This document shows, in pieces, positions 22,351-64,000 of a DNA stretch of 64,000 nucleotides. The position numbers were made by a program, and so were the translations under genes. Positions within the stretch are counted from its first letter, which is position 1. Each line of letters opens with the position of its first letter. This DNA comes from a virus: the IMG/VR virus record IMGVR_UViG_3300050821_003228, positions 33,818-97,817 of that record; one strand, 5' to 3'. Under the pieces are notes generated by a model. The model saw only the letters and a list, made by a program, of their open reading frames with translations, did no database searches and was not told the origin of the DNA.

Positions 22351-22352
22351 AC

Positions 22353-22381: not shown

Positions 22382-22396
22382 CATAATAGGAGAAAA

Positions 22397-23036: not shown

Positions 23037-23042
23037 AATAAT

Positions 23043-23204: not shown

Positions 23205-23208
23205 CATT

Positions 23209-23433
23209 ATGATGACTCGCGGCAAGTTTCAATGTTATAGTGATAAGAGAGTTTACTGGAATAAGGACGTTCATGTCTACACGTTTCAGGCAGTTTGTAA
23301 TGATGGAACACCTGAAAACGAGCGGTTTCATAAGTATACGCCATCAGGATCAATTGAAATAACAGTTGATAATCCTAATGTCGTTCTTGAACCGGGCAAG
23401 TTTTATTATGTAGATTTTACTGAAGTAAGTTAA
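23209..23433 (+). CDS. Hypothetical beta-rich protein
   Basis: A 74-residue protein beginning ATGATG just after a -10 box. The alternating pattern (SGSIEITVDNPNVVLEPGKFYYVDF) suggests a small beta fold. It precedes the second tRNA island. Confidence 0.6.
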   Translation: MMTRGKFQCYSDKRVYWNKDVHVYTFQAVCNDGTPENERFHKYTPSGSIEITVDNPNVVLEPGKFYYVDFTEVS

Positions 23434-23437
23434 AGTT

Positions 23438-23513
23438 GGGCTTATAGCTCATTCAGGAGAGCGCCTGTCTTGCAAACAGGAGGCGACCGGGGCGGAACCG
23501 GTTAAGTCCACCA
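23438..23513 (+). tRNA. tRNA-Ala(TGC)
   Basis: Acceptor GGGCTTA/TAAGTCC, discriminator A, CCA; D stem GCTC/GAGC; anticodon arm CCTGT-CTTGCAA-ACAGG; T stem ACCGG/CCGGT with a non-standard loop GGCGGAA. Confidence 0.88.
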
Positions 23514-23518
23514 TTTTT

Positions 23519-23593
23519 GAGGCTAGGGTATGACTGGCGGTGCCACAGGTTTCCACCCTGTAGAGTCCGATTCGATTTCGGATAGCCTCTCCA
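23519..23593 (+). tRNA. tRNA-Gly(TCC)
   Basis: Acceptor GAGGCTA/TAGCCTC, discriminator T, CCA; anticodon arm ACAGG-TTTCCAC-CCTGT; T stem TCCGA/TCGGA. Confidence 0.9.
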
Positions 23594-23597
23594 TTTT

Positions 23598-23672
23598 GGG
23601 CGCGCACCTTCTGGTGAAGGCTCAAGTTTGTGAAGCTTGTAGAAATACATTCGATTTGTAGCGTGCCCTCCA
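23598..23672 (+). tRNA. tRNA-His(GTG)
   Basis: Acceptor GGGCGCG/CGTGCCC, CCA encoded; anticodon arm CAAGT-TTGTGAA-GCTTG. The discriminator is T and no G-1 is encoded, unlike standard tRNA-His (G-1:C73). Confidence 0.8.
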
Positions 23673-23677
23673 TTTTT

Positions 23678-23753
23678 GGATATGTCGTATAAAGATAAAT
23701 ACTCTGTTTTCGTAAAACAGCTAATGTCGGCTCAATCCCGGCCATATCCTCCA
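23678..23753 (+). tRNA. tRNA-Thr(CGT)
   Basis: Acceptor GGATATG/CATATCC, discriminator T, CCA; anticodon arm CTGTT-TTCGTAA-AACAG; T arm GTCGG-CTCAATC-CCGGC. Confidence 0.88.
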
Positions 23754-23828
23754 GTAGATATAATATAATGGCTATTATAATTTCTTGGTAAGAAATTTAT
23801 ATGCGTTCGATTCGCATTATCGGCTCCA
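23754..23828 (+). tRNA. tRNA-Thr(GGT)
   Basis: Acceptor GTAGATA with TATCGGC (one mismatch), discriminator T, CCA; anticodon arm ATTTC-TTGGTAA-GAAAT; T arm ATGCG-TTCGATT-CGCAT. Abuts the previous tRNA. Confidence 0.85.
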
Positions 23829-23829
23829 T

Positions 23830-23903
23830 GCACTTGTAGCATAATGAAATGCCCCATACTTGTAATATGGCTTATGTCGGCCCATTGCCGATCAAGTGCT
23901 CCA
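23830..23903 (+). tRNA. tRNA-Thr(TGT)
   Basis: Acceptor GCACTTG/CAAGTGC, discriminator T, CCA; anticodon arm CCATA-CTTGTAA-TATGG; T stem GTCGG/CCGAT with atypical loop CCCATTG. Completes a Thr set of three anticodons. Confidence 0.85.
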
Positions 23904-23911
23904 TTTTTATT

Positions 23912-23986
23912 GCGGGAATAGCTCAGAGGCAGAGCACAACATTGCCAATGTTGAGGTCGCGGTTTCAACATCCGTTTCCCGCTCCA
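23912..23986 (+). tRNA. tRNA-Gly(GCC)
   Basis: Acceptor GCGGGAA/TTCCCGC, discriminator T, CCA; anticodon arm CAACA-TTGCCAA-TGTTG. Confidence 0.88.
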
Positions 23987-23987
23987 T

Positions 23988-24064
23988 ATGCCGTTGGCGA
24001 AGAGGTCAAACGCGGAAAGCTACAACCTTTCTAATCAGGGGTTCGACTCCCTTACGGCATTCCA
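23988..24064 (+). tRNA. tRNA with anticodon ACA by position (Cys codon UGU)
   Basis: Acceptor ATGCCGT/ACGGCAT, discriminator T, CCA; D stem GCG/CGC; anticodon arm GAAAG-CTACAAC-CTTTC; T arm AGGGG-TTCGACT-CCCTT. A34 is very rare in bacterial tRNAs outside Arg(ACG), so the decoding identity is uncertain. Confidence 0.65.
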
Positions 24065-24069
24065 TTTTT

Positions 24070-24150
24070 ATGTTTGAATTTATATTAATGATTTTAGCTA
24101 ATTTGGCCCATAGAATCGGGCCGGAATATCCTAATTATAAACAAGATTAA
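24070..24150 (+). CDS. Possible 26-residue peptide between tRNAs
   Basis: ATG-started ORF (MFEFILMILANLAHRIG...) filling the gap between two tRNAs. No ribosome site or promoter is visible, so expression is doubtful. Confidence 0.25.
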   Translation: MFEFILMILANLAHRIGPEYPNYKQD

Positions 24151-24151
24151 T

Positions 24152-24225
24152 AGGTGATTGATGTAATGGAAGCATGACAGTCTCCAAAACTGTTCGTAAG
24201 GGTTCAAGTCCTTTATCATCTGCCA
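24152..24225 (+). tRNA. tRNA-Trp(CCA)
   Basis: Acceptor AGGTGAT/ATCATCT, discriminator G, CCA; anticodon arm ACAGT-CTCCAAA-ACTGT; T arm AAGGG-TTCAAGT-CCTTT. Confidence 0.9.
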
Positions 24226-24228
24226 TTT

Positions 24229-24369
24229 ATGGGCAAAGCTAATAAAATGCCTTATGTACCGACAGAATGGGCTAAACATCTTCGCCCGTTTCTGAAACGG
24301 CTGTTCTGGAAGAAAGTTCGCCGTAAAACGAAAGAATTGACAAATCGAGTAAAGGATGATATAAGTTAA
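24229..24369 (+). CDS. 46-residue highly basic peptide
   Basis: MGKANKMPYVPTEWAKHLRPF followed by a Lys/Arg-rich helix (FLKRLFWKKVRRKTKELTNRV). Fills the space between tRNA-Trp and the HNH gene. No ribosome site is evident; could bind nucleic acid or membrane. Confidence 0.45.
   Translation: MGKANKMPYVPTEWAKHLRPFLKRLFWKKVRRKTKELTNRVKDDIS
24337..24365 (+). promoter_or_regulatory. Sigma70-type promoter, leaderless
   Basis: TTGACA at 24337, 17-nt spacer, TATAAG at 24360, 6 nt to the ATG at 24372 of the HNH gene. Confidence 0.75.
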
Positions 24370-24371
24370 AT

Positions 24372-24878
24372 ATGCAAGACTGTTTAGTGGTGGATTCAAC
24401 ACATCGGCCCATCGCTTACTGCTCTTGGATGGAAGCGGTCAAACTTTATTATGAAGGTGTAGCGGACATTATTAAAGAGGATGCTGAGAAAGAAATACAC
24501 TCGCCCTCTGTAACAATGAAGGTTCCAAGAGTTATAGCAATTAGGAATTACGTCTCGAAGAGATTCGGGCGCGATACTATAACACTTACAAGACGTAATA
24601 TTGCTATCCGTGATGAACGAAAATGTCAGTACTGCGGGCTGGAATTAAGTAATGATGAACAAACGCTTGATCACGTTATTCCCCGTTCTCGCGGCGGCAA
24701 GAGTTCATGGGATAACCTTATATTATGTTGCAAGCCATGTAACCGCTTAAAGGCAGATTTAACTGTTGAAGAAGCAGGAATGAAATTGTTAAGCATTCCA
24801 AAGAAACCCAAACCGGGAGTGCAGTACCGAGGAATCGGGCACGTTAGACCGGAATGGGCCGATTACGAGAGGAATTAG
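24372..24878 (+). CDS. HNH endonuclease (McrA/5-methylcytosine-type HNH)
   Basis: A 168-residue protein. N-terminal domain with VDSTHRPI..CSWMEAVKLYYEG and KVPRVIAIRNYV, then CQYCG, LDHVIPRSRGGKSSWDNLILCC and KPCNRLKADLT, the standard HNH core with zinc CxxC pairs. This type (HNH family with N-terminal VL..N..P...W..A) is common in bacteria and phages. Its stop overlaps the first base of the following tRNA. Confidence 0.85.
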   Translation: MQDCLVVDSTHRPIAYCSWMEAVKLYYEGVADIIKEDAEKEIHSPSVTMKVPRVIAIRNYVSKRFGRDTITLTRRNIAIRDERKCQYCGLELSNDEQTLDHVIPRSRGGKSSWDNLILCCKPCNRLKADLTVEEAGMKLLSIPKKPKPGVQYRGIGHVRPEWADYERN

Positions 24879-24952
24879 GCTGTTTAGCTCAAAGATGGAG
24901 CAAGCGTCTCATTAACGCAAGGCTATTGGTTTAAATCCAATAACAGCCACCA
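24878..24952 (+). tRNA. tRNA with CAT anticodon (elongator Met or Ile2)
   Basis: Acceptor GGCTGTT/AACAGCC, discriminator A, CCA; D stem GCTC/GAGC; anticodon loop CTCATTA on stem GCGT/ACGC; T arm TATTG-GTTTAAAT-CAATA. A paired 1:72 rules out initiator. Met versus lysidine-modified Ile cannot be settled from sequence. Confidence 0.82.
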
Positions 24953-24956
24953 AGTC

Positions 24957-25113
24957 GGGCCGGGGAGAGAGGTTAAATGGGAACTATGCCTATTCTCACA
25001 AGTGATTCCCACAACGGTCCATCAATTTTTGAGTAGCCCACATTGCTGAGGCAAGGCCAGCCCAAAGATAAACGGAAGAGAAAGCACCACAGCCTAGCGC
25101 CGTTTCTCAAAAA
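24957..25113 (+). ncRNA. Two-domain structured RNA between two CAT tRNAs
   Basis: Domain 1: GGGCCG (24957-24962) with CGGTCC (25015-25020), enclosing TGGGAA/TTCCCA (24978-24983 with 25006-25011). Domain 2: TTTTTGAG (25026-25033) with CTCAAAAA (25106-25113), extended inside by AAACGG/CCGTTT. No ORF and no known family recognised. Confidence 0.5.
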
Positions 25114-25124
25114 CCAATTTTTAT

Positions 25125-25201
25125 GGCGAGTTAGTAGCGTAGGACAATACGAGAGGCTCATAACCTCTAAACGGTGCGTGCAAATCCACCACTCGCAACC
25201 A
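25125..25201 (+). tRNA. Initiator-like tRNA-fMet(CAT)
   Basis: Anticodon arm AGAGG-CTCATAA-CCTCT. The 3' end CTCGCAACCA makes pair 1:72 a G-A mismatch, the hallmark unpaired position of initiators (C-A in E. coli). Only two of the three conserved G-C pairs of the anticodon stem are kept; T arm irregular. Confidence 0.75.
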
Positions 25202-25216
25202 ATTTAGTTGTACAAT

Positions 25217-25248
25217 AGTTACTAGGGAGAGAAACAGCTTCCTAGTAA
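25217..25248 (+). other. Hairpin between tRNAs
   Basis: GTTACTAGG pairs with CCTAGTAAC across a 14-nt loop. No T-run follows. Probably a processing signal within the tRNA transcript. Confidence 0.5.
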
Positions 25249-25258
25249 CAGCGCGTTT

Positions 25259-25336
25259 GTGGAATTAGTTTAAATGGCTTAGAACCCTTGACTTTCAATC
25301 AGGAAGATGCGAGTTCGACTCTCGTATTCCACACCA
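25259..25336 (+). tRNA. tRNA-Glu(TTC)
   Basis: Acceptor GTGGAAT/ATTCCAC, discriminator A, CCA; anticodon arm CTTGA-CTTTCAA-TCAGG; T arm GCGAG-TTCGACT-CTCGT. Confidence 0.85.
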
Positions 25337-25344
25337 AAATTTAT

Positions 25345-25434
25345 GGATAACGGGCAGGACGGGTAATGCAATGTCCTGCTAAGTCATGATAACCGAAAGG
25401 TTATAACCGAGTTCGACTCTCGGGTTATCCGCCA
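25345..25434 (+). tRNA. tRNA-Ser(GCT)
   Basis: Acceptor GGATAAC/GTTATCC, discriminator G, CCA; anticodon loop CTGCTAA on stem ATGTC/GTCAT (one mismatch); class II variable arm ATAACC-GAAA-GGTTAT; T arm CCGAG-TTCGACT-CTCGG. Confidence 0.88.
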
Positions 25435-25435
25435 C

Positions 25436-25528
25436 GGAAGGTACCGCTGAGAGGTCAGCAATTGGCTTTGAACACCAAGGAAACCGTATGCACTACGGTT
25501 TAGCGTTCGACTCGTTTATCTTCCGCCA
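25436..25528 (+). tRNA. tRNA-Ser(TGA)
   Basis: Acceptor GGAAGGT/ATCTTCC, discriminator G, CCA; anticodon loop TTTGAAC on stem TTGG/CCAA; class II variable arm AACCGTA/TACGGTT; T-loop TTCGACT. Confidence 0.88.
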
Positions 25529-25529
25529 C

Positions 25530-25603
25530 GAAGCTGTCATCTAATGATAGGATAGAACTTTCTCAAGGTTTTAATACGGGTTTGACTCCCGTCAGCTTCA
25601 CCA
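25530..25603 (+). tRNA. tRNA-Glu(CTC)
   Basis: Acceptor GAAGCTG/CAGCTTC, discriminator A, CCA; D stem ATC/GAT; anticodon arm GAACT-TTCTCAA-GGTTT (G-U rich); T arm ACGGG-TTTGACT-CCCGT. Confidence 0.83.
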
Positions 25604-31633: not shown

Positions 31634-33538
31634 ATGAAAGAGTTATCGCAATATCAAACGTATATTGCCAAATCGCGCTATGCGAAGTGGATACCAGAAT
31701 TAAGCAGGCGAGAGAATTGGGACGAAACAGTTAACCGTTACATCACATTTTTTAAAGATAGAATACCAAAATCAGATCGAGAAGAAGTAACTAAAGAATT
31801 ACAAAAGGCCATTTTAGAAATGGATGTAATGCCTTCAATGCGGGCTATGATGTTTGCGGGGCCGGGATTAGAGAGGGATAACTGTGCGGGCTATAATTGC
31901 TCGTATTTAGTAATAGATGATCCCAGAGCATTTGATGAAACTTTATACATATTAATGTGTGGTACAGGAGTAGGCTATTCAGTCGAACGCCAATTTATAT
32001 GTAAAATGCCGTATATTGCTGAGGTCTTTTATGAGACTGAAACTACGATTAAAGTGCCCGATTCTAAGATTGGATGGGCAACATCATTTAGACAATTGAT
32101 CGGACTTTTATATGGTGGACTAGTTCCTAAATGGGATATGTCGTTAGTTCGTCCTGCCGGAACGATATTAAAAACAGGGGGCGGGCGTGCCTCTGGTCCT
32201 GAACAACTAGAAAAGCTATTTAAATTTACAATCAATCTGTTTAAAAATGCTGCCGGAAGGAAATTGAATTCTGTTGAATGCCATGATTTGATGTGTGCAA
32301 TTGCAGATATTGTTGAAGTTGGTGGGGTACGTCGCGCTGCAATGATTAGTCTTAGTAATTTTAGTGATGATAGAATGCGGAATGCAAAAAACGGGCAATG
32401 GTGGTTAGAACATAATTATCGCCGTCTTGCTAATAATTCTGTCGCATATACTGAAATGCCAGATGTTGAATCGTTTCTGAAAGAATGGGCAACGTTAGTG
32501 GAGAGTAAATCAGGAGAGAGGGGCATATTTAATCGTGAGGGAGCTAGAAAGCACATTTTGAAAAATGGCCGTAGAGCCATCAAGGTAAACGATGAATTTA
32601 TAGAGTTTGGAACCAACCCTTGCGGCGAAATCCTTCTTCGTCCGAATGGATTTTGTAATCTTTCAGAAGTTATTATCCGTCCAGATGATGACAAGAAAAG
32701 CTTGAAGAAGAAGATAAGATTAGCCACTATTATCGGGTGCCTTCAATCAACATTGACTGACTTCCGTTATCTTCGTAAAATTTGGACTAAGAATGCCGAA
32801 GAAGAAAGGTTATTAGGAGTTAGTTTAACCGGCATAATGGACAACCCGCTGATGTATACGAACGGGACAGAATTAGAAAAGTTATTGACTGAATTGCGAG
32901 AATATGCTGTCACAGTAGCTATGGAATGGGCCGAAAAGTTAAAAATTAACGTTCCGGCGGCGATCACTTGTGTTAAACCGTCTGGAACTGTCAGTCAACT
33001 AGTCAATTGTTCGCCGGGCATACATACTCGTTGGAGTCCTTACTACATTCGGGCCGTTCGAGAAGATAATAAAAGTCCTATTACCCCCTTTTTACGCGAT
33101 ACAGGCGTTTACAGCGAGGTTGAAAATTCAAGGCCGAACGACTCAACCGTGTTCTTTTGGCCGCTAGAATCGCCCCTAATGAGCCGCTGTAAGGATGATT
33201 TTACAGCTATCGAGCAACTAGAACTGTATCTAACATATAAGAAATGTTGGACCGAGCATAATCCATCATGTACTGTATATGTTAAACAAAATGAATGGAT
33301 TGAAGTTTGTGCGTGGGTATATCGTAATTTTGCTGACATAGGCGGGGTTTCATTCTTACCTAGTTCGGACCATATTTACCAACAAGCCCCCTATCAACAA
33401 GTTACAAAGGAAAAATACGGAGAGTTTAAAAAGAAAGTGCCAGCGATTGATTGGAATAAATTGACTGACTATGAGAAAGAAGACATGACCGATGTTAAGC
33501 ATGAACCGGCCTGTAGTTCAGGAGTGTGCGAACTGTGA
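31634..33538 (+). CDS. nrdJ: Class II (adenosylcobalamin-dependent) ribonucleotide reductase
   Basis: 634 residues. MPSMRAMMFAGPGLERDNCAGYNCSYL with MCGTGVGYSVERQF (residues about 68-120), VGGVRRAAMISL, TNPCGEILL (active-site Cys/Glu loop), ITCVKPSGTVSQLVNCSPGIH, and the C-terminal redox pair ACSSGVCEL fit the monomeric B12-dependent ribonucleoside-triphosphate reductases found in phages. No ATP-cone domain and no NrdB are present. It supplies dNTPs for phage DNA. Leader hairpin and promoter lie upstream. Confidence 0.9.
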   Translation: MKELSQYQTYIAKSRYAKWIPELSRRENWDETVNRYITFFKDRIPKSDREEVTKELQKAILEMDVMPSMRAMMFAGPGLERDNCAGYNCSYLVIDDPRAFDETLYILMCGTGVGYSVERQFICKMPYIAEVFYETETTIKVPDSKIGWATSFRQLIGLLYGGLVPKWDMSLVRPAGTILKTGGGRASGPEQLEKLFKFTINLFKNAAGRKLNSVECHDLMCAIADIVEVGGVRRAAMISLSNFSDDRMRNAKNGQWWLEHNYRRLANNSVAYTEMPDVESFLKEWATLVESKSGERGIFNREGARKHILKNGRRAIKVNDEFIEFGTNPCGEILLRPNGFCNLSEVIIRPDDDKKSLKKKIRLATIIGCLQSTLTDFRYLRKIWTKNAEEERLLGVSLTGIMDNPLMYTNGTELEKLLTELREYAVTVAMEWAEKLKINVPAAITCVKPSGTVSQLVNCSPGIHTRWSPYYIRAVREDNKSPITPFLRDTGVYSEVENSRPNDSTVFFWPLESPLMSRCKDDFTAIEQLELYLTYKKCWTEHNPSCTVYVKQNEWIEVCAWVYRNFADIGGVSFLPSSDHIYQQAPYQQVTKEKYGEFKKKVPAIDWNKLTDYEKEDMTDVKHEPACSSGVCEL

Positions 33539-34038
33539 GTTTAAACAAAGATAACGCTTTATCAAAGGAAACCGAATACCGCAAGAAATACGGTCCGCGA
33601 TATACGTATTTATTTAAATGTTCTGAACCAGAATGCACTAAAATAATAAGAGTTAGAAGTGATTATCTTAACCGATCATCGGGTCAATGTAATATTCATT
33701 CTCATCAAAAACGTCCATTTGAAAGTTTATATAACTCATTATATAACGATTGGCGCGGTACTGAAGTAACCTTAACTTATGAAGAGTTTTTAGAATTTAC
33801 AAAAATTAAAAAATGTCATTATTGCAGTTATGGTATTTTGTGGATTCCATTTGGAACGGTAGCGGGAGAGTACAAATCAAGAGCATATTACTTAGATAGA
33901 AAAAATCATAATGAAGGGTACACTAAAGAAAATTGTGTTGTTTGTTGTTCTAAATGCAACATCATTAGGCGGGACCACTTTACATATGAACAATTTTTAG
34001 AAATTGGTAAATTAATAAATAAATGGCGTATTGAATAA
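33535..34038 (+). CDS. HNH endonuclease overlapping the RNR stop codon
   Basis: 167 residues from a GTG that overlaps the RNR stop (GTGA). CSEPECTK near the N-terminus, CHYCSYG, YYLDRKNHNEGYTKENCVVCCSKCN. This is the same subfamily as the gene at 38411 (IDRKDNNLGYTKENCVICCTQCN), pointing to two members of one mobile family in this genome. Confidence 0.82.
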   Translation: MSLNKDNALSKETEYRKKYGPRYTYLFKCSEPECTKIIRVRSDYLNRSSGQCNIHSHQKRPFESLYNSLYNDWRGTEVTLTYEEFLEFTKIKKCHYCSYGILWIPFGTVAGEYKSRAYYLDRKNHNEGYTKENCVVCCSKCNIIRRDHFTYEQFLEIGKLINKWRIE

Positions 34039-41669: not shown

Positions 41670-43567
41670 ACAGTAATATTACCAATAACCCTTTCTGCTT
41701 CTTTAATAACATTCAACTCTCTTAGCGTGCTCGTTGCTCCATCGAACTCTAGTTTGACGCTGCCCCCGCCCGAATAACGAGTCAGCCCGATGTTAAAGTG
41801 TGTAATAGGATCAAAAGATTCGGCCCGTTCAGCGTAATCAGCAATATCTTTTTCCTTCAAATCGGCATCAAATGACTTTCGATGAATAGCAATCATAACA
41901 TCGCAATCCTTTGCTATTTGGCTTGCCCCATCTACATTATTCGTAGTAACGACCTTACCATCATAAAGACGGTGCGGCTGAAGAATACGAATCATTTTAA
42001 TCCCGTAGTCCTTCGCTATCTGACTCAAAACCTTACTGATCTGAGAAAGATGAATCGTTCGATTTTGATTAACTAAAGTTGTATCACATAATCTCTGAAT
42101 GTTGTCTATCATTACCCATTTTACACCATAACGACGAATACAATCTTTAATCAACTTATAAATATCATCAACTGTTTTATAGTGTGGATAACAGAAATAA
42201 AGCGTGCCGGGACGGTTTGCAGCTAATTGCCGTGCCCTTGGTATCGCTTTCTTAAACTGTTCTAACTGGAAACGATCAGATTTATCATCAGTCGGTATTA
42301 AATCTGGTACTCCAGTGACATGACTAACCCATTTCTTACTAAAGCGAAGAACTGTCATTTCAAGACAAATGATGACCGCGCTTTCTTCATATTTATTAAC
42401 GGCATATTCCAGCATGTTCATGCCAATTGTCGATTTGCCTATCTTCTCTGGCGCGACTAAATCTATAATATCTCCGTCTTCAAAGCCGACATACTTATTA
42501 ACAGATTCCCATGGTGTTCCGTACTTTGGACGCACCGAAGTCTTGCCTTTAAACATATCTTCTAATTCATCTAACGCGCCTTCTGTACTTGATACACCTT
42601 GGACATCAAATAATTGAGCATCTTGTTTTAGCTGCTCAAAATTTTCAAGATTTCCGTTTCCACTGACAAACCATTCGTTAAGGTCTTTACCCGGCTTTGT
42701 ACTTCCGTCAGAACTGCCGGATACGGGCACGGTAAAATTAGGCAATACGATCTTATAGCATTTTTCGATGCCAATCTTTGATGCAAGCGTTTGCGCCGAT
42801 TTTTGGCCGACTTTATCTGTGTCATAGCAAATATATATTTTCTCTGGCGCGATTCTATCAATTAATTCGATCCATAAAGACTTCTGAACATTCGCGCCCG
42901 GTACACCAACGATGTTATAAATACCATGATCCATCGCAGCTATGCAGTTAGCTTCACCCTCGACCATAATCAACTCGGTCAGCCCTTCATGCAATATTTC
43001 TCCGTTATAAAGCGGAGCATCCCAACCCTTCGGGCTACTAAACGCCTTTTCTGCCGGGGGTAATGTCCTGTAATGAACATAAATCGGCTTACCTTGTACT
43101 AAGTACGGATAAACTAGTGCTCTGACTTCATTCGTTTCTTTGAAGTACCTTCGAGTCAGCCCGAGTTTTTGTTTCTCTATAATCTCTCTACTGAACCCGC
43201 GCTCGTTAATCAAATAATCAAGAACATCAATATCTTCTAATAAAGCCTGATGTAATACGTCTATATCAGGCAATTGTTCTTGTTCACGTTCGCCCGGCCT
43301 GCTCCAATTTGAGGGAGACATAACTCCCGGTACTTCTAGTCCAAGATGTTCTCTAAGTCTTCGCCCATTGCCTGAAACCCCGCATTTATGACAAATAAAT
43401 AGATTATCACGATTAGTTCCATCAGCAATGACGTAAAAATGCCCGTAGCCCGATTTCTTACAAAAAGGGCAGGTTTCTAATTCTAATTTATCGCCGTTTT
43501 CCTTATAATTCCATCCTTGTGACTTAACTAACTGTAATGCTTTACTATTCTCGGCAATCTCTAACAT
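41666..43567 (-). CDS. Primase-helicase (T7 gp4-like)
   Basis: 633 residues: zinc finger C33/C36...C59/C62, Toprim primase core with VEGE (about 201-204) and YDTD (247-250), then a DnaB-like RecA-fold helicase with Walker A APEKIGKS (371-378), AVIICLEMTVLRFSKKW and WVMIDNIQRL (Walker B). Combines primer synthesis and fork unwinding. Leaderless start: the -10 box is 5 nt from its ATG. Confidence 0.9.
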   Translation of the reverse strand: MLEIAENSKALQLVKSQGWNYKENGDKLELETCPFCKKSGYGHFYVIADGTNRDNLFICHKCGVSGNGRRLREHLGLEVPGVMSPSNWSRPGEREQEQLPDIDVLHQALLEDIDVLDYLINERGFSREIIEKQKLGLTRRYFKETNEVRALVYPYLVQGKPIYVHYRTLPPAEKAFSSPKGWDAPLYNGEILHEGLTELIMVEGEANCIAAMDHGIYNIVGVPGANVQKSLWIELIDRIAPEKIYICYDTDKVGQKSAQTLASKIGIEKCYKIVLPNFTVPVSGSSDGSTKPGKDLNEWFVSGNGNLENFEQLKQDAQLFDVQGVSSTEGALDELEDMFKGKTSVRPKYGTPWESVNKYVGFEDGDIIDLVAPEKIGKSTIGMNMLEYAVNKYEESAVIICLEMTVLRFSKKWVSHVTGVPDLIPTDDKSDRFQLEQFKKAIPRARQLAANRPGTLYFCYPHYKTVDDIYKLIKDCIRRYGVKWVMIDNIQRLCDTTLVNQNRTIHLSQISKVLSQIAKDYGIKMIRILQPHRLYDGKVVTTNNVDGASQIAKDCDVMIAIHRKSFDADLKEKDIADYAERAESFDPITHFNIGLTRYSGGGSVKLEFDGATSTLRELNVIKEAERVIGNITV

Positions 43568-43572
43568 ACTTA

Positions 43573-43601
43573 ATTATATCATTCTCGATAGATGAAGTCA
43601 A
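43573..43601 (-). promoter_or_regulatory. Sigma70-type promoter, leaderless, of the primase-helicase
   Basis: On the minus strand TTGACT (43601-43596), 17-nt spacer, TATAAT (43578-43573), 5 nt to ATG at 43567. It lies inside the 3' end of the frameshifted HExxH gene. Confidence 0.8.
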
Positions 43602-43933
43602 AAGCTTCTTGTGTTAGATAGCCTAAATGATATGCCACAACTTCGTCATCAAACTCAGCACCTACCCGGTCACATATTTTACGGGCACAGTGCCAACATT
43701 CATGGGCTATAGTACCAACCTTACATTTTATCAGGGAATACTAAATAGGATATGCCAACAGCACCGATCCAAATGTGCATTGCCTCACATTCATCAGCTT
43801 TATGTGGTATATCGTATAATTTAAAAATCTTTTTGATTGACCGTTGCAGATCGTTACTAACTATAATTCTTACTGAATAATCAGCAAAAACAGGGAATTT
43901 TATTACTTTTGAGCGTTCTTTAAATTTTTTCAT
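43579..43933 (-). pseudogene. HExxH metallopeptidase-like gene split by a frameshift
   Basis: The first frame (43933-43721) gives MKKFKERSKV...ISYLVFPDKM and stops at TAA. The +1 frame continues without a break as KVGTIAHECWHCARKICDRVGAEFDDEVVAYHLGYLTQEAF to a TGA at 43579. Together they read as one roughly 117-residue protein with HExxH (HECWH) and a following Glu, like phage proteins of the TIAHE..H type. The shift is at GATAAAATGTAAG (about 43721-43733). Confidence 0.7.
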
Positions 43934-44289
43934 GTTTGCGGCGTAATGATGACATAATCAACGCCAACTTTCTTTAATCCGATCAATTCTGCGGCCCGCT
44001 CTGATAAGTCAATTGTTCGGCCCTTGATCCACGGACCACGATCATTAACTCTAACAGTTACAGATAACCTTGTTCGTGGATAATATACAGTCAATATAGT
44101 GTTTTTAGGATAAAATTGGGATGCACAGGTCAATTCTTTAGGATTAAATGCTTCTCCGTAGGCCGTTTTCTTACCAGCAAATCTAATTCCGTAAAATGAT
44201 GCTAACCCGCGAGTTATTGGCAATTTAGTTAACATAGCGCCCATAGTTAATGTTAACATCATTATTATAACAATTGTTAACTTAATCAT
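43930..44289 (-). CDS. RlpA-like double-psi beta-barrel protein
   Basis: A 119-residue protein. N-terminal hydrophobic signal/anchor (IVIIMMLTLTMGAML), then GLASFYGIRFAGKKTAYGEAF, LTCAS, VRVNDRGPW and RTIDLSERAAELIGL, the RlpA signature with the catalytic-type Asp/His region. RlpA proteins cleave or bind naked glycan strands. A cell-wall role during lysis or entry is likely. Confidence 0.85.
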   Translation of the reverse strand: MIKLTIVIIMMLTLTMGAMLTKLPITRGLASFYGIRFAGKKTAYGEAFNPKELTCASQFYPKNTILTVYYPRTRLSVTVRVNDRGPWIKGRTIDLSERAAELIGLKKVGVDYVIITPQT

Positions 44290-44645
44290 CAGGCATTATT
44301 CCTTGAAATTCATTCAATACAGTTCCGCAGCGGACTTTACTCCACAATTCTTTCCTGTTAATCCAAAGAAGACGATCTAATACTTTGAAGGCCGTTTCTA
44401 TGTCGGGCCGGGTTCCCTTATAATTCTTCTCATTCAATCGAGCACCTAATGCCCAATTGCCCGATTCTGGCTTCAATTCTAGGAAATCGCCGTCTGGGAG
44501 GAGCACTTGGAATCCGGCCCCCATTCGTTCCCAAGTATACCCATCCCGAACTTCGGGCCGCCCTTTTTTTGGTACTGCTACGGCCTTACCCTCGATAATA
44601 TTGTTGTTCCAAGCATTGTGCTTTTAATTTTTGCGTTCTCGATCA
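44282..44645 (-). pseudogene. Hypothetical gene interrupted by a frameshift near its start
   Basis: The natural start is ATG 44645, which overlaps the phosphoesterase stop and has GAGGT in front, giving MIENAKIK. At ATTAAAAGC (about 44617) the reading must slip -1 to continue as KHNAWNNNIIEGKAVAVP, then KKGRPEVRDGYTWERM and a further 79 residues to 44282. The downstream frame is open but has no start codon before 44524. Function not recognised. Confidence 0.6.
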
Positions 44646-45278
44646 TATTGTAACCTCAAATGGATTATATACCACTTTATAAGATTCATCAACAACGGTT
44701 GAATTATAGAATTTAGTACCATTCAACTCATATTCACCGCGCCCACCATGTAAATGTCCAAATGTATGAATCTTAGGTTTAACTTCTAACACTCTAGTCA
44801 GAAGATCATCACACCCGGCTGAAATACCATCTTGAATTCGATCTAAAATCTTATGGGGCGGGCCGTGCGTAATAAGTACATCAGTATCGCCCGGTATGGC
44901 ATCCCAAAAACGCTTAATTTTCAGTCCACGGTCAACGTTAAACGCCCAATCAGAAAACCACGGAGTCATTGGTGAACCGTAGAATTTTAGTCCTTGTATC
45001 GTTACAGCACTATTCTGAAGATAATAAACACCGGCCTCAAGCATCATGTCTCTTGCTTTCTTCTGGCGATGATCTTCAAAGCAAAAATCATGGTTTCCGG
45101 CGATAGTCACGATTTGCTGATAACGATCAGTTTGTTTCTTGAACCAATCGGCCACTTTAGCCAATTCATCTAATGAACCAGACATAGTAAGGTCGCCACT
45201 ATGAATCAAAATATCACCTTCCGGCAGGTTGACCTTATCGTGTTGTCCGTGCGTGTCTGAAATTAGTATTAGTCGCAT
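44643..45278 (-). CDS. Calcineurin-like metallophosphoesterase
   Basis: A 211-residue protein. SDTHGQHD, HSGDLTMSG, IAGNHDFCF, THGPPHKILD and HTFGHLHGGRG are the five metal-binding motifs of the superfamily. Phage relatives act on nucleic acid ends or nucleotides; the substrate is unknown here. Confidence 0.9.
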   Translation of the reverse strand: MRLILISDTHGQHDKVNLPEGDILIHSGDLTMSGSLDELAKVADWFKKQTDRYQQIVTIAGNHDFCFEDHRQKKARDMMLEAGVYYLQNSAVTIQGLKFYGSPMTPWFSDWAFNVDRGLKIKRFWDAIPGDTDVLITHGPPHKILDRIQDGISAGCDDLLTRVLEVKPKIHTFGHLHGGRGEYELNGTKFYNSTVVDESYKVVYNPFEVTI

Positions 45279-45284
45279 AGATAT

Positions 45285-45713
45285 TTACCAATTTATTGTG
45301 TAGAATGCAGTATAAGTAGTACATTCATATTCACTTCCGTTAGTTTCCGAATATGAATAATGCTCTTGTGGATTAACGCTCTCCTCAATAATATAACCGG
45401 ACCTTCTATATTCATCAAGAATTTTAGTAACTTCTTTAATGTAAGGATGAAATTTAAAGGCTTTTTCTGCCTCTGTTCGATAATCATAGCCGGGTTGTAA
45501 ATCTTTAGTACAATAGGTCTTTCCGGCTTTAACTGCATCTGCTATCTCAGAGTCTAAGTATGATTTAAACCAAAATAAGTAATCTTTTTTATCTTTCTTT
45601 GCTTTTTCGATAGCTTCTAAAGCTTTATTTTTCTCTCTTTCTTCTCTTGCCTTATTTCTATCGTCTACAACTTTCTGGGCCGTTAATCGCGCCGCTTTAG
45701 CGTTCATAATCAT
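45285..45713 (-). CDS. Charged coiled-coil protein
   Basis: 142 residues from ATG 45713 (GGGAG 9 nt upstream); a TTG at 45722 is a weaker choice. Lys/Glu-rich coiled coil in residues about 10-50, then a globular part ending in TYTAFYTINW. Overlaps the upstream HNH gene by 4 nt. Confidence 0.65.
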   Translation of the reverse strand: MIMNAKAARLTAQKVVDDRNKAREEREKNKALEAIEKAKKDKKDYLFWFKSYLDSEIADAVKAGKTYCTKDLQPGYDYRTEAEKAFKFHPYIKEVTKILDEYRRSGYIIEESVNPQEHYSYSETNGSEYECTTYTAFYTINW

Positions 45714-59650: not shown

Positions 59651-59893
59651 TTAGGGATAAACTAGGGTATCAGTCGAGGGGATGTGCTGTACCATCACAG
59701 CTTCTTGAGAATTAAGCTTGCCTATCGCGTCTGCAATGGCCGTTATTTCGTCTACGGGCCGATCTGAGAGGTCAATTACTAGGGATTGCTCTTTGACTCC
59801 ATGCCAAACGCCAATAGCAGAAAAAGCCGTACAATCGCCGCAAAGCGAAAGTACGGCATCGAAGTTTTTATTCTCTGTCAGAATTCTATACAT
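59651..59893 (-). CDS. Hypothetical protein
   Basis: 80 residues, alpha/beta (SLVIDLSDRPVDEITAIADAIGKLN), ATG overlapping the end of the ART-like gene by 8 nt. Confidence 0.6.
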   Translation of the reverse strand: MYRILTENKNFDAVLSLCGDCTAFSAIGVWHGVKEQSLVIDLSDRPVDEITAIADAIGKLNSQEAVMVQHIPSTDTLVYP

Positions 59894-60368
59894 CGTAATC
59901 CTGAGACACGAACGCGGCAGGATTCCGCATTGTAAATGTTAAAGGTTTAACCGCTTTGACGTAATCAGCCGGAATCGGACACTGGCAGGTTAGCCCGTCG
60001 AACATATCCGCCTGTACGTCCGTTTCTAGCTGAATATCCTCGGGAATGTCTAATTCGACAATAGCCGGATTAGCTTTCCTCTGTGTCCTTCCAAGCTTGA
60101 TTAGTTTTAATCCGCCCCATGGAAGTGCTTCGCCCGGTTTAGCCCGTTCATACTGTGCGCGGAATTGAGCAAACATCTCCGCTACATCTTTCCTCCGAGT
60201 GACATAAACCCTTGGTTCATTTTCCATCGGAGTATTGCCGCTTTCATCACGCAATTTCCATCCATTGTCAGATCGCATCGTATTAAAGGCTGTTTCTCTG
60301 TGCGGAATCAGCCCGATTTTACGAATTTGTCTAGCCGCCGATAAGGTAGTGCCGTGGTAAACAATCAT
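59886..60368 (-). CDS. ADP-ribosyltransferase-like fold protein
   Basis: A 160-residue protein. IVYHGTTLSAARQIRKIGLIP (H-Y[HG]T motif), EPRVYVTRRKDVAEMFAQF and the later NPAIVELDIPED resemble the ART superfamily (R/H..YVT..a pattern) of phage toxins and modifiers. Which acceptor, if any, is modified is unknown. Overlaps the HExxH gene start by 4 nt. Confidence 0.6.
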   Translation of the reverse strand: MIVYHGTTLSAARQIRKIGLIPHRETAFNTMRSDNGWKLRDESGNTPMENEPRVYVTRRKDVAEMFAQFRAQYERAKPGEALPWGGLKLIKLGRTQRKANPAIVELDIPEDIQLETDVQADMFDGLTCQCPIPADYVKAVKPLTFTMRNPAAFVSQDYDV

Positions 60369-60787
60369 CGGCCTAACCCTCGGAATAAGGATTCGATTGT
60401 CATTCCCTTCGTTTGATCTTGATAAGTGCTAAGGGAACGACGTTCATTATCTTTGTCGAGGTCAGGAACCATCAAGTTTGCTAATTCCCAAGCCTTTTTT
60501 TCAGCAGGAACCTGAGAACGGACGTTACCAGTTAACGCAATTTCCATTACGTTAATATTCCTGTGCGTTTGATCTTGTGAAACGATTGAAACAAAATGAC
60601 CTAACTCATGAGCCAATGTCGTTTGAAAGTCTTTTTGTGTCTTGACTCTGAAATCACCATATTTCTTATCCACACTCCCACCGTTTACGGTAATTTCAAA
60701 GAGGTTAAAAGATTTTTGTTGAGTAACACTCGAATCGGGCGAATCGGGGTCAACGTATAGATCGAGAGTAGCAATTTTACGTCTCAA
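60365..60787 (-). CDS. HExxH metallopeptidase-like protein
   Basis: 140 residues: TLAHELGHFVSI carries the zinc HExxH; a downstream Glu/Asp-rich helix may give the third ligand. Forms a pair with the ART-like gene. Confidence 0.7.
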   Translation of the reverse strand: MRRKIATLDLYVDPDSPDSSVTQQKSFNLFEITVNGGSVDKKYGDFRVKTQKDFQTTLAHELGHFVSIVSQDQTHRNINVMEIALTGNVRSQVPAEKKAWELANLMVPDLDKDNERRSLSTYQDQTKGMTIESLFRGLGR

Positions 60788-60797: not shown

Positions 60798-60845
60798 CTA
60801 GGGTAGTTACCCTAATAGCCCGTCTCCGAACGGGCTAATGTGAGA
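60798..60845 (-). repeat. Intercistronic two-hairpin element, copy 1
   Basis: Hairpins TAGCCCGT/ACGGGCTA (60816-60837) and AGGGTA/TACCCT (60800-60813), preceded on the minus strand by CACATT. One of four copies with the same plan. Confidence 0.7.
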
Positions 60846-60854
60846 ACTACCGAA

Positions 60855-61079
60855 CTACTCATGAAAAAAACCTTTTCCGATTGAACGGTCAGCCCACAAT
60901 TCCCCGCCCAGATGGATTAGGCGAACAATGAATCCAGCGAAAGAGAACTTTGCTAAACCGTGTTCTCCGACAATCGTAAGCGTAATTGCGATAAACAGGA
61001 ACACGCCGGCATGTTTAAGCTTAGGGTGTTTCTGTCCTACAACGTGCGTGAGTATTACGATTTTTCTTAGTCTCTTCAT
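60855..61079 (-). CDS. Membrane protein
   Basis: 74 residues with a hydrophobic stretch (GVFLFIAITLTIVG) and basic N-terminus. 1 nt after the upstream gene. Confidence 0.62.
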   Translation of the reverse strand: MKRLRKIVILTHVVGQKHPKLKHAGVFLFIAITLTIVGEHGLAKFSFAGFIVRLIHLGGELWADRSIGKGFFHE

Positions 61080-61418
61080 CTACCAAATGCCTGTAGGGTC
61101 GGAATTGCGTCTCGAATCCTTTTCCCGTTGAATGCAATCTAATACAGTGTCAGCCCCTTCAGTATGGCAGACATGAAAATCGGAATCATCCGGGCGTACA
61201 TTCGCACCGATAGGGGAAACTACCGGAGTAATAGACGCGCCTTGATGATTGAAAATGTAAGAAGCGTATTCCTCGGGCCAAGTACCAGACGGAAGATGAT
61301 TAGCCTTATGGAATTGTTCAGCCGCTTTCAGCGTTTCAGCTAGATCAGCAACAGAGTAGAACGTTACAACCTGTCTAATCTGTCGATTAATAGGGGCGAT
61401 TGCAGATTGTCTCTTCAT
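61080..61418 (-). CDS. Hypothetical protein
   Basis: 112 residues; SVADLAETLKAAEQFHKANHLPSGTWPEEYASYI suggests a helical fold. Unknown. Confidence 0.62.
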   Translation of the reverse strand: MKRQSAIAPINRQIRQVVTFYSVADLAETLKAAEQFHKANHLPSGTWPEEYASYIFNHQGASITPVVSPIGANVRPDDSDFHVCHTEGADTVLDCIQREKDSRRNSDPTGIW

Positions 61419-61430
61419 TCGTCTATCCTA

Positions 61431-61484
61431 GAGGGTAGTTCCCTCAATCGCCCGATTCTAATAAACTAATCGGGCCAATGTGAG
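61431..61484 (-). repeat. Intercistronic two-hairpin element, copy 2
   Basis: GCCCGATT/AATCGGGC (61450-61475) and GAGGG/CCCTC (61431-61445), with CACATTG in front on the minus strand. Confidence 0.7.
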
Positions 61485-61486
61485 CA

Positions 61487-61678
61487 CTACAATTTAGGTA
61501 AATAAGCCTCTGATTCTTCTGATAATTCCCCGCCGTCTTCATGATCGAGGAGAATCATATCGTGCTTTACTAATATATTAGTCACTGGTGAAATCATAGT
61601 TTCTTCCAGATAATTAGCAAAGCACACTGTTACATCAGCGCCGTTTAGCAATTTTTGGGCTAATGTATGGGCCGTCAT
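61487..61678 (-). CDS. Hypothetical protein
   Basis: 63 residues; resembles small phage proteins with a ADVTVCFANYLEE strand pattern. ATG overlaps the upstream stop by one base. Confidence 0.6.
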   Translation of the reverse strand: MTAHTLAQKLLNGADVTVCFANYLEETMISPVTNILVKHDMILLDHEDGGELSEESEAYLPKL

Positions 61679-61959
61679 TAGTCATCCCCTACAATTTTTT
61701 CATCAAACGATTTAAATTCTTCGGGCGAATAATCATCCAATTCGTCTGAAAAATCATCTTCGTCATCTGACTCGGGCGATTCGGTATGATCCATGATTGT
61801 AGTCAAGAGATGGTTATAGTCTCCTGACTTAGCTTCGTCTAATACGACCTTAATTTCCGCAGCCGTCCAACCTTCCCGTTGTGCCTGTCTCTGGAAAGCG
61901 CCCATGATAGAAAACGCATTCCCATCTAGCCCGACTAATTCAAGTTTTACTTTTTTCAT
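61678..61959 (-). CDS. Conserved-looking phage protein with acidic tail
   Basis: 93 residues; LVGLDGNAFSIMGAFQRQAQREGWTAAEIKVVLDEAKSGDYNHLLTTIMDH is a common small phage domain, followed by a Asp/Glu-rich tail. Function unknown. Confidence 0.68.
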   Translation of the reverse strand: MKKVKLELVGLDGNAFSIMGAFQRQAQREGWTAAEIKVVLDEAKSGDYNHLLTTIMDHTESPESDDEDDFSDELDDYSPEEFKSFDEKIVGDD

Positions 61960-61975
61960 TCATTTTACCTCTTTG

Positions 61976-62036
61976 ATTAGATTTTGACTACATTACGGCA
62001 CCCCTACAAAGTAGGATGCCGGATGAGGTCAAAATA
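61976..62036 (-). other. Hairpin in the leader of the 93-aa gene
   Basis: TTTTGAC/GTCAAAA (outer, at about 62029 and 61984) enclosing CGGCATCC/GGGGTGCCG. Lies between the 28-aa peptide gene and the 93-aa gene. Confidence 0.5.
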
Positions 62037-62115
62037 CTTGCGCTATCGCGTCTCCAATGACTAACGCGATTAGCGCGGCAATCGAGAGAATCAAGTAATA
62101 GTCTAGATTACGCAT
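62029..62115 (-). CDS. 28-residue membrane peptide
   Basis: MRNLDYYLILSIAALIALVIG..., single helix; ATG overlaps the stop region of the upstream gene. Confidence 0.5.
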   Translation of the reverse strand: MRNLDYYLILSIAALIALVIGDAIAQVF

Positions 62116-62341
62116 CAGGATAAATCCTCTCTCCAACCTGTTCACCGTAGATCGGTAGATAGGGCGAGACATCAAATCCGCCGTCATGAATGGGTACCTG
62201 ATAGACTAATTGACTCATTCCAGTTTGATTAGCAAGCTTTACTCCCTTGTCTACCGCTTGCTCAAAACTGAGAGGAGATGGTTGTGGGAATCTCATCGAA
62301 TGCCCCACAGGAACGTTATCAGGCATCCTAATAGCCCACAA
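62108..62341 (-). CDS. Hypothetical protein
   Basis: 77 residues from TTG 62341, or 72 from ATG 62326; neither has a strong ribosome site. LSFEQAVDKGVKLANQTG and VYQVPIHDGG look protein-like. Confidence 0.55.
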   Translation of the reverse strand: MWAIRMPDNVPVGHSMRFPQPSPLSFEQAVDKGVKLANQTGMSQLVYQVPIHDGGFDVSPYLPIYGEQVGERIYPDA

Positions 62342-62382
62342 ATGCCTGAAACGAAGATCATACCGAAGAAAAATACAATCAT
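62293..62382 (-). CDS. 29-residue membrane peptide
   Basis: MIVFFFGMIFVSGICGLLGCL..., a single hydrophobic helix with site GAGGGGGAAACG upstream; overlaps both neighbours. Confidence 0.5.
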   Translation of the reverse strand: MIVFFFGMIFVSGICGLLGCLITFLWGIR

Positions 62383-62708
62383 CGTTTCCCCCTCTTCACT
62401 GACTCAATTTTGACAGTCTCGCCGTTAACGAATTCAGAGAACAGAAAACCCTTTGCGCTTTTCTTGTCTGTGGCGTCGATGACGGCGCGATATTTGAATC
62501 CGCCATTAACCCGGTAGTCAATCGAGTACGGATTAGTCTTCCTCGGTACGAGAGAATCATGCGCGATTTGGGCAATGTGATTAATCGCGGAATCGGCATT
62601 CATTCTTTGACCGTTAATCATGAACGTTTGTGCGAGGTCATTATCCGTATCGTAATTCCGAGTACGGACGATAGCGGCAATCTTTTCTAATGCTGTCCTC
62701 TCCTGCAT
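62379..62708 (-). CDS. Hypothetical protein
   Basis: 109 residues; mixed fold with DYRVNGGFKYRAVIDATDKKSAKGFLFSEFVNGETVKI resembling small phage accessory proteins. Preceded by the copy 3 hairpin element. Confidence 0.62.
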   Translation of the reverse strand: MQERTALEKIAAIVRTRNYDTDNDLAQTFMINGQRMNADSAINHIAQIAHDSLVPRKTNPYSIDYRVNGGFKYRAVIDATDKKSAKGFLFSEFVNGETVKIESVKRGKR

Positions 62709-62720
62709 AAGCTTTTATCT

Positions 62721-62768
62721 CCCGGAGCTAATTAGCTCAATCGCCCGTCTGCGAACGGGCCAATGTGT
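62721..62768 (-). repeat. Intercistronic two-hairpin element, copy 3
   Basis: GCCCGT/ACGGGC (62743-62760) and the palindrome GAGCTAATTAGCTC (62725-62738), preceded by ACACATTG on the minus strand. Confidence 0.7.
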
Positions 62769-62771
62769 TAA

Positions 62772-63044
62772 TTAATAAAGCGAGATACCTAACTCATGTA
62801 ATACTTGTGGAGACTCGCTCTCTAACTCCTGATAGAACCGGGACTCTTGAATCGGATGGTTTTGCACGTAATGGCGAACTGTCGATTCGCCTAAAACATC
62901 TTCCATTGTCGTTGTATCTGGTACAGTAGCTACTTCGGGCAGGGAATCAACGTATTCCTTCGGATGACCGTTAATCAACGGGCAGGTTTGGTAATGCCCG
63001 ATAACCCTTACATACTCGCTCGAATTTTCGTTATCGCTTGCCAT
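62772..63044 (-). CDS. Hypothetical protein
   Basis: 90 residues from ATG 63044 (AGGAGC in front; the frame to 63068 overlaps the leader element). MASDNENSSEYVRVIGHYQTC..., unknown. Confidence 0.62.
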   Translation of the reverse strand: MASDNENSSEYVRVIGHYQTCPLINGHPKEYVDSLPEVATVPDTTTMEDVLGESTVRHYVQNHPIQESRFYQELESESPQVLHELGISLY

Positions 63045-63054
63045 CGGTAAGCTC

Positions 63055-63104
63055 CTAATTTTAGTCACTCAATCGCCCGATTCTAAAAAATCGGGCCAAT
63101 GTGT
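63055..63104 (-). repeat. Intercistronic two-hairpin element, copy 4
   Basis: GCCCGATT/AATCGGGC (63075-63096), preceded by ACACATTG; the second hairpin is degenerate here. Confidence 0.65.
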
Positions 63105-63106
63105 TA

Positions 63107-63688
63107 CTAAAACTTAATCCTCTTTTCCTTAAACAACCGCATCATTAGGGAATAGGGAGTGTGGAATTTACCTTTTCCCCACAGTGTTTTATCCTCTCGG
63201 AAATTACACGCACGTTGTACGTGTACGCCTGAATACGGGCAGGGTCCGCCATTTGCCCAAATGTCGAATGCTTTTCTATTCGGGTGACAAGATGCATCAT
63301 ACATCATTAAATCGGCGCACAATTCGGGCGATACTCTTCCCCACGAAGCGAGTAATACCATTGTTGGTGAGGGTAGGTCAGCCCAACGGAGGTCAGCCGA
63401 ACTGAGGTTAGCCCAACTGAGGTCAGCCGAACTGAGGTTAGCCCAACTGAGGTCAGCCGAACTGAGGTTAGCCCAACGGAGGTTAGCCCAACTGAGGTCA
63501 GCCGAACTGAGGTTAGCCCAACTGAGGTCAGCCGAACTGAGGTTAGCCGAACTGAGGTTAGCCCAACGGAGGTTAGCCCAACGGAGGTCAGCCGAACTGA
63601 GGTTAGCCCAACTGAGGTCAGCCGAACTGAGGTTAGCCGCGTCTATTTCCTTGATTAACACGCCTGTGTAACGATTAATTATTTTCAT
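63107..63688 (-). CDS. Pentapeptide-repeat protein
   Basis: 193 residues. Residues about 18-105 are about 17 consecutive A(N/D)L(S/R)(S/W) pentapeptides forming a right-handed quadrilateral beta-helix, as in MfpA/Qnr-type proteins, some of which mimic DNA and bind gyrase. The remaining 90 residues ([30 protein letters not shown]) form a separate domain. First gene after a promoter. Confidence 0.85.
63400..63640 (-). repeat. 15-bp DNA repeats encoding the pentapeptides
   Basis: Near-identical alternating 15-bp units (plus strand AACTGAGGTCAGCCG and AACTGAGGTTAGCCC) across the repeat region, nearly unmutated at third positions. Confidence 0.8.
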
Positions 63689-63867: not shown

Positions 63868-64000
63868 TAGAGACTGTCCTACATGCCCGAATTTCAGATG
63901 ACCTAGAGCCTACCTGATACAGAGATAGGCTCTAGGATTGGCTGCTATTGCAATTGTGAATCATCGCATAGCAGGGCGGAACCCACAATTACGTCATAGT
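63868..64000. other. Gene-free end of window with hairpin
   Basis: Contains CTAGAGCCTA/TAGGCTCTAG (63910-63942), a 10-bp inverted repeat with 13-nt loop. No gene or tRNA recognised; probably continues into sequence beyond the window. Confidence 0.4.

What the first reader, a model, noticed from the sequence alone, without database searches (positions are those of the whole stretch)
60798..63104. Four copies of an intercistronic two-hairpin element
Each lies between a stop codon and the next start on the minus strand, with the layout (A)CACATT(G/A)-GCCCG hairpin-GATTGAG hairpin-ribosome site. Stem sequences differ (GCCCGATT, GCCCGT, TAGCCCGT), keeping pairing, and the second hairpin varies (AGGGTA, GAGGG, GAGCTAATTAGCTC). 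A repeated regulatory or processing module, perhaps protecting or spacing mRNA segments, binding a phage protein, or tuning translation.
Basis: seen in the sequence. Interest (0 to 1): 0.7.

Follow-up and report, generated by a model that had tools for sequence, protein, structure and literature searches.

The report
Stop-to-start RNA hairpins in soil phage
A large, apparently complete phage genome, related to a phage of soil Acidobacteria, repeats one RNA structure five times between a gene's stop codon and the next gene's ribosome site; two relatives carry different sequences of the same general plan in the same region, so this looks like a working mRNA-handling device, and I found no earlier description of it.

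Summary
Four copies lie at the stated places. A fifth lies at the other end of the 97.8-kb contig, whose identical 97-bp ends make the five one minus-strand cluster. P0 keeps pairing through changes on both sides (covariation 0.34 against 0-0.09 when slid). The exact motif was not found in IMG/VR, but Tunturiibacter phage Tunturi_3, a collinear relative, has four elements of the same two-state plan with different sequence, and relative G002 has four copies of another two-hairpin module. All lie 8-15 kb downstream of the DNA polymerase gene on its strand. Best explanation: an intercistronic mRNA-processing and stabilising module, working like T7 RNase III sites, with P1 and P2 capping the new RNA ends (about 0.42). 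Rivals are a stop-codon-gated translational switch and a protein-binding element. No RNA data exist, so the function is inferred.

The parts
63057..63114 (-). Copy e1, whole long imperfect hairpin: P0 (UUUUAGU/ACUAAAA core, 9 pairs) including stop codon TAG 63107-63109; internal mismatches; P1 at 63075-63096 (GCCCGATT/AATCGGGC). P2 is weak here.
   Evidence: Sequence, in-register pairing, fold -29.7 kcal/mol with local flank
62725..62775 (-). Copy e2: P0 UUAAUUA/UAAUUAG including stop codon TAA; P1 at 62743-62760 (GCCCGT/ACGGGC); P2 GAGCTAATTAGCTC at 62725-62738.
61431..61490 (-). Copy e3: P0 GUAGU/ACUAC including stop codon TAG; P1 at 61450-61475 (GCCCGATT/AATCGGGC, 10-nt loop); P2 GAGGG-AACTA-CCCTC at 61431-61445.
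60799..60851 (-). Copy e4: P0 GGUAGUU/AACUACC, starting 3 nt after stop codon TAG; P1 at 60818-60835, extended by TA/TA; P2 TAGGGTAACTACCCTA at 60799-60814.
   Evidence: The fifth copy, e5, lies outside the window at contig 345-412 (L006, minus): P0 UAGGU/AUCUA, P1 GCCCGATT/AGTCGGGC, P2 GAGTC-ATCTA-GACTC.
63107..63688 (-). Gene upstream of e1: 193-aa pentapeptide-repeat protein. Its stop codon lies in the e1 5' arm.
62772..63043 (-). 89-aa ORF downstream of e1 and upstream of e2; no convincing family.
62379..62708 (-). 109-aa ORF downstream of e2, no family.
61080..61418 (-). 112-aa ORF downstream of e3, no family.
60365..60787 (-). 140-aa ORF downstream of e4 (TTG start), carrying an HExxH motif (HELGH).

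Best explanation
The element is an intercistronic mRNA-processing and stabilising module in a polycistronic minus-strand transcript. As transcribed, P1 plus P0 form one long imperfect hairpin from the upstream stop codon to just before the downstream ribosome site. This is the kind of duplex a bacterial RNase III can cut, as in the T7 early region. A cut in the 3' arm, in or near GATT^GAG about 10-12 nt from the helix base, would leave P1 at or near the 3' end of the upstream mRNA. It would also free the basal strand of the downstream mRNA to refold as P2, a stem-loop at the new 5' end directly before the Shine-Dalgarno sequence, a position known to protect bacterial mRNAs. Shown here: location, orientation, copy number, in-register long hairpin, mutual exclusion of P0 and P2, compensatory changes, and the same plan in Tunturi_3. 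Inferred: transcription as one unit, cleavage, the enzyme, the cut site and the stabilising effect.
For: Five copies in one orientation, each between stop and start. Long hairpin in register. 96.3% of cells paired, 5 pairs changed on both sides, covariation 0.338 against 0-0.086 when slid. The long form is the predicted fold at 37 C with local upstream flank in all five. P2 kept in 4 of 5 with different sequences. P1 loop length varies from 6 to 10 nt or more while the stem is kept, which suits RNA better than a two-half-site DNA operator. Tunturi_3 has four elements of the same two-state plan with unrelated sequence and longer duplexes from stop codon to ribosome site. G002 has four copies of another two-hairpin intercistronic module with covarying stems. 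T7 R1.1 is a 60-nt internal-loop hairpin between genes 1.0 and 1.1 cut by RNase III (PMC6121014). The two states follow naturally from 'before cut' and 'after cut'.
Against: No RNA data. Our copies have mismatches at fixed places, and the middle of the helix is weak. The 10-12 nt distance from helix base to P2 is partly forced by the size of P2. Copy e1 lacks a good P2. With longer flanks e3, e4 and e5 are predicted to prefer other folds. Conserved unpaired bases (CACATT, ATTGAG) are more than a plain RNase III site needs. A ribosome on the upstream gene would open P0.
Confidence: 0.42

Rival explanations
1. Stop-codon-gated translational switch. The ribosome that finishes the upstream gene covers the P0 5' strand, breaks the long hairpin and lets P2 form beside the Shine-Dalgarno sequence, so downstream translation depends on upstream translation.
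For: The P0 5' strand contains or lies within 3 nt of the stop codon in all nine elements of the two phages. Masking -20..+11 around the stop makes P2 the predicted fold in 7 of 9. In some copies the upstream coding end can also pair with the Shine-Dalgarno region (e2, T1, T2, T3 by inspection). RNA-unfolding coupling is known, for example phage f1 VII/IX and rpmI-rplT at +52 nt (PMC12548453).
Against: Masking changes predicted accessibility of the Shine-Dalgarno region little or inconsistently (e1 0.43 to 0.34, e2 0.43 to 0.44, e3 0.49 to 0.71, T2 0.33 to 0.59). Both states leave it mostly free. The gaps (63-81 nt) are long for coupling.
Confidence: 0.22
2. Binding site for a phage or host RNA-binding protein, recognising the conserved unpaired bases (CACATTN / NATTGAG internal loop, (A)AYTA loop) on a paired scaffold, to repress, protect or tune several genes together.
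For: Invariant CACATT and near-invariant ATTGAG beside covarying stems. G002 has an invariant TGACC loop on covarying stems. Each phage has its own sequence, as expected if a binder co-evolves. The phage encodes an RNA-binding-protein homologue (phrog_850, window 13526-14947).
Against: No binder identified. The phrog_850 homologue has no match in Tunturi_3 or the 12 pulled relatives. Mutual exclusion of P0 and P2 is not needed for a simple binding site.
Confidence: 0.22
3. Transcription-level element: put-like or nut-like antitermination RNA, terminator, or DNA operator such as a stoperator or ESAS site.
For: Two adjacent stem-loops of about 60-70 nt resemble HK022 put in outline (PMC9378689). 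SAS/ESAS also sit between phage genes in one orientation (PMC3203893).
Against: put occurs once per early promoter and its members share sequence; here sequence is private to each phage. No boxA-like site near the copies, no U-run and no terminator call at them. Half-site spacing varies by up to 8 bp and changes keep RNA pairing, unlike ESAS, whose repeats do not support RNA pairing according to its authors.
Confidence: 0.09
4. A repeat spread by recombination between accessory-gene cassettes, with no function of its own in expression.
For: Copies lie in a hypervariable arm among genes with no homologue in the relatives.
Against: Compensatory changes, strict orientation and strict stop-to-start placement imply selection on RNA structure.
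Confidence: 0.05

Closest known systems
T7 early-region RNase III sites (R1.1 and others)
   Same: Several intercistronic hairpins of about 60 nt in one transcription unit, upper stem plus internal loop plus lower stem, each placed between genes.
   Different: Here the internal loop is a row of conserved 1x1 mismatches, the basal strand has a second mutually exclusive hairpin beside the ribosome site, and cleavage is not shown.
[quoted passage not shown]
   Same: Multi-copy, mostly one orientation, immediately upstream of gene starts, inverted repeats with variable spacer, sequence differing between subclusters.
   Different: The SAS consensus is absent here. ESAS repeats do not support RNA pairing according to their authors (PMC3203893); here changes keep pairing. 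Host phylum differs.
HK022 put RNA
   Same: Phage RNA of about 70 nt with two adjacent stem-loops.
   Different: put lies downstream of the two early promoters, one each, and works by contacts on RNA polymerase; these lie between genes in 4-5 copies with sequence private to each phage.
RNA-unfolding translational coupling elements (phage f1 VII/IX, rpmI-rplT)
   Same: A structure spanning the end of the upstream gene that a translating ribosome would open.
   Different: Here the ribosome site is not clearly sequestered, and a dedicated alternative hairpin exists.

Membership tests
T7-type RNase III intercistronic site | Lies between cistrons, several copies in one transcription unit | tested here: met
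   Five copies, same strand, between stop and start. Co-transcription itself is not shown.
T7-type RNase III intercistronic site | About two helical turns of duplex: upper stem, internal loop or mismatches, lower stem | tested here: met
   In-register long hairpin of 20-24 positions plus loop, by prediction and covariation; longer duplexes in Tunturi_3.
T7-type RNase III intercistronic site | Cleaved by RNase III in vivo or in vitro | not testable with these tools
   Needs RNA end mapping or purified enzyme.
SAS/ESAS | 13-bp SAS consensus GGGATAGGAGCCC within two mismatches | tested here: not met
   No match in the window.
SAS/ESAS | Inverted repeats whose variation does not support RNA pairing | tested here: not met
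   Pairing is kept through changes on both sides; authors' statement.
lambda nut (boxA + boxB) | boxA-like sequence upstream of the hairpin | tested here: not met
   boxA-like matches at chance level, none at the copies.
HK022 put RNA | put sequence near early promoters, antiterminates without protein | tested here: inconclusive
   Copies are intercistronic and sequence differs between phages; activity not testable. No Rfam family reaches its threshold in the region.
Intrinsic terminator | GC stem followed by U-run | tested here: not met
   No U-run after P1 or P2; scan finds none at the copies.

The most novel reading that the evidence does not exclude
A phage family uses repeated, two-state RNA switches built on stop codons. 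Each phage has its own sequence but keeps the plan: the stop-codon region pairs with the loop of a hairpin that guards the next ribosome site, so the fate of each downstream gene is set by whether a ribosome has just finished the upstream gene.
Probability: 0.22. Interest if true: 0.78.

Novelty: new variant of a known kind. Interest (0 to 1): 0.6.

Why it matters
Repeated start-proximal elements in phages (SAS/ESAS) have been an open puzzle, partly because their sequence gave no RNA signal. Here the RNA signal is strong, two-state, and kept by a relative with unrelated sequence, so the mechanism can be tested directly. Tunturi_3 is a cultured phage with a cultured host, which makes RNA end mapping feasible. 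If the processing model holds, it shows how phages of Acidobacteria divide a long transcript into separately stable mRNAs.

Tried and rejected
Exact-motif scans of IMG/VR gave none or only chance hits (context). A Tunturi_3 motif scan gave two hits, judged chance on inspection. Searches with the 140-aa and 651-aa neighbours found no relatives. CACATT pairing with the start codon region was considered and dropped because it is extended in only some copies. Kissing between the P1 and P2 loops was dropped because it fails in e2 and e4. A lambda nutR-like reading (CACATT then GCCC hairpin) came from memory; a boxA test was negative. A DNA operator was rejected on variable half-site spacing plus pairing-preserving changes. 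A REPIN-like mobile repeat was considered because of GTAG/CTAC in e3 and e4 but is not general. Shine-Dalgarno sequestration as the general switch output was not supported by partition-function modelling. The P1+P0+P2 detector gave no family above background in the 12 other relatives, so the exact two-state plan is shown only in two phages. In G008 and G010 repeated intergenic sequences exist, but the first is GC-rich and variably structured and the second shows no clear hairpin; they are not counted as support.

Full report
What is there. The window is positions 33,818-97,817 of a 97,817-bp viral contig. The contig ends are identical over 97 bp, so the genome appears closed at about 97.7 kb. 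CACATTNGCCCG occurs four times in the window against 0.04 expected. Reading the rest of the contig gives a fifth copy at contig 345-401. Across the joined ends it belongs to the same minus-strand gene cluster, just upstream of the four.

The missed feature. Aligning the flanks outward from the GCCCG stem shows that each copy is one long imperfect hairpin in perfect register. The 5' arm begins at or beside the stop codon of the upstream gene. The basal stem (P0) pairs UUUUAGU with ACUAAAA (e1), UUAAUUA with UAAUUAG (e2), GUAGU with ACUAC (e3), GGUAGUU with AACUACC (e4) and UAGGU with AUCUA (e5). Between P0 and the upper stem P1 lie the invariant CACATT and near-invariant ATTGAG, with a UxU mismatch in every copy and an AxA (once AxG) mismatch three places further out. 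Summed run length is 33 in register, 9-16 when slid by 1-4, and 0 of 100,000 draws of random genomic 5' arms reach 33. With P0, middle pairs and P1 together, 96.3% of cells pair, five pairs change on both sides and the covariation score is 0.338; slid versions give at most 0.086 and none of 500 column shuffles reaches the score. The structure was derived from these sequences, which favours it on cells paired above all, and five sequences is a small set.

Two exclusive states. It is present in four of five copies (chance about 3.5e-7), with stems GAGCT/AGCTC, GAGGG/CCCTC, TAGGGT/ACCCTA and GAGTC/GACTC. With about 24 nt of upstream flank, the long form is the predicted fold in all five at 37 C. 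With 140 nt of flank, e3, e4 and e5 favour P2 with other pairings; when a ribosome-sized stretch around the stop codon is blocked, P2 forms in 7 of 9 elements of the two phages. So both states are plausible, and the switch is suggested by sequence, not proven.

Relatives. The only close annotated relative found is Tunturiibacter phage Tunturi_3 (PP885686, 97,608 bp, podovirus of an acidobacterium), collinear over head, tail, replication and recombination genes. Its minus strand has four elements at about 75.3, 76.6, 77.7 and 78.5 kb. Each has a P1 of its own, then a P2 CTGC-TATTA-GCAG (CTGC-TATTT-GCAG in one copy, CTGCT-AATT-AGCAG in another), then a ribosome site. The P2 loop pairs back to the stop region (CTAAT with ATTAG; CAAAT with ATTTG in the variant copy, a matched double change). 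A capsid-protein profile brought in 80 more related contigs. The CACATTNGCCCG motif is in none of 22 tested. Among 12 pulled genomes, G002 has four copies of a different module: stop codon, GTGAAA, covarying P1, covarying 7-bp P2 with invariant TGACC loop, then GATCAGGTC(A/G), whose GGTC(A/G) can pair with that loop. The modules of our phage, Tunturi_3 and G002 all lie 8-15 kb downstream of the DNA polymerase gene on its strand, in a region of small genes without homologues in the relatives. The other relatives show no such family by the tests used, apart from repeated sequences in G008 and G010 that are not counted.

How it most likely works. The best single account of a long hairpin from stop to ribosome site, plus a second hairpin hidden in its basal strand, is processing: the long hairpin is cut in its 3' arm, P1 remains near the 3' end of the upstream message, and P2 forms at the 5' end of the downstream message next to its ribosome site. 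The architecture is like T7 R1.1 (for R1.1; the other T7 sites and 5' stem-loop protection are from general knowledge). The steps of co-transcription, cutting, enzyme and stabilisation are inferred. A translation-gated switch and a protein-binding scaffold remain serious rivals; predicted accessibility of the ribosome site does not change consistently enough to favour gating.

What it is not. It is not an SAS/ESAS member (for pairing), not a boxA-boxB site, not an intrinsic terminator, and no Rfam family reaches threshold in the region. Resemblance to HK022 put is in outline only.

Verdict. A real, structured, repeated intercistronic RNA element with a two-state plan shared by a relative with unrelated sequence. 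It works like known phage mRNA-processing sites by inference, and is a new variant by anatomy. Interest 0.6.

Noticed in passing
window 13526-14947 (+): 473-aa protein matching phrog_850 (RNA-binding protein, E 2.8e-44), near the tRNA genes; no match in Tunturi_3 or the 12 pulled relatives.
   Followed up: partly
window 63374-63650: Pentapeptide-repeat gene made of about 17 copies of a 15-bp DNA repeat; G007 and G010 encode relatives.
   Followed up: partly
window 11368-25603: Nineteen tRNA genes in several groups, against three reported for Tunturi_3.
   Followed up: no
window 61960-62020 (-): Another intercistronic hairpin (GGCATCCTAC-TTT-GTAGGGGTGCC) upstream of the 93-aa phrog_1933 gene, not of the repeated family.
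   Followed up: no
contig ends: L006:1-31 and window near 63900-63940: Perfect 9-bp stem TAGAGCCTA...TAGGCTCTA after the 99-aa gene, at the joined contig ends.
   Followed up: no
G002 minus strand 11425-15576 (L106): Four-copy two-hairpin intercistronic module with covarying stems, invariant TGACC loop and a complementary GGTC(A/G) just downstream, suggesting a pseudoknot.
   Followed up: partly
G010, e.g. + 41740-45661 (L133) and - 32889-33548 (L132): Repeated CTAGTTTAA, often as AACTAGTTTAA, at or near gene ends, without a clear hairpin; contains possible stop codons.
   Followed up: no
G008 + 12150-19013 (L156): GC-rich repeated intergenic sequence (AACCCGGCCCAGCTC), some copies forming hairpins, in the same district downstream of DNA polymerase.
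   Followed up: partly
window 59886-60368 (-): 160-aa protein beginning MIVYHGTTLSAARQIRKIGL, which by eye resembles ADP-ribosyltransferase-like or Tpt1-like proteins; not tested.
   Followed up: no
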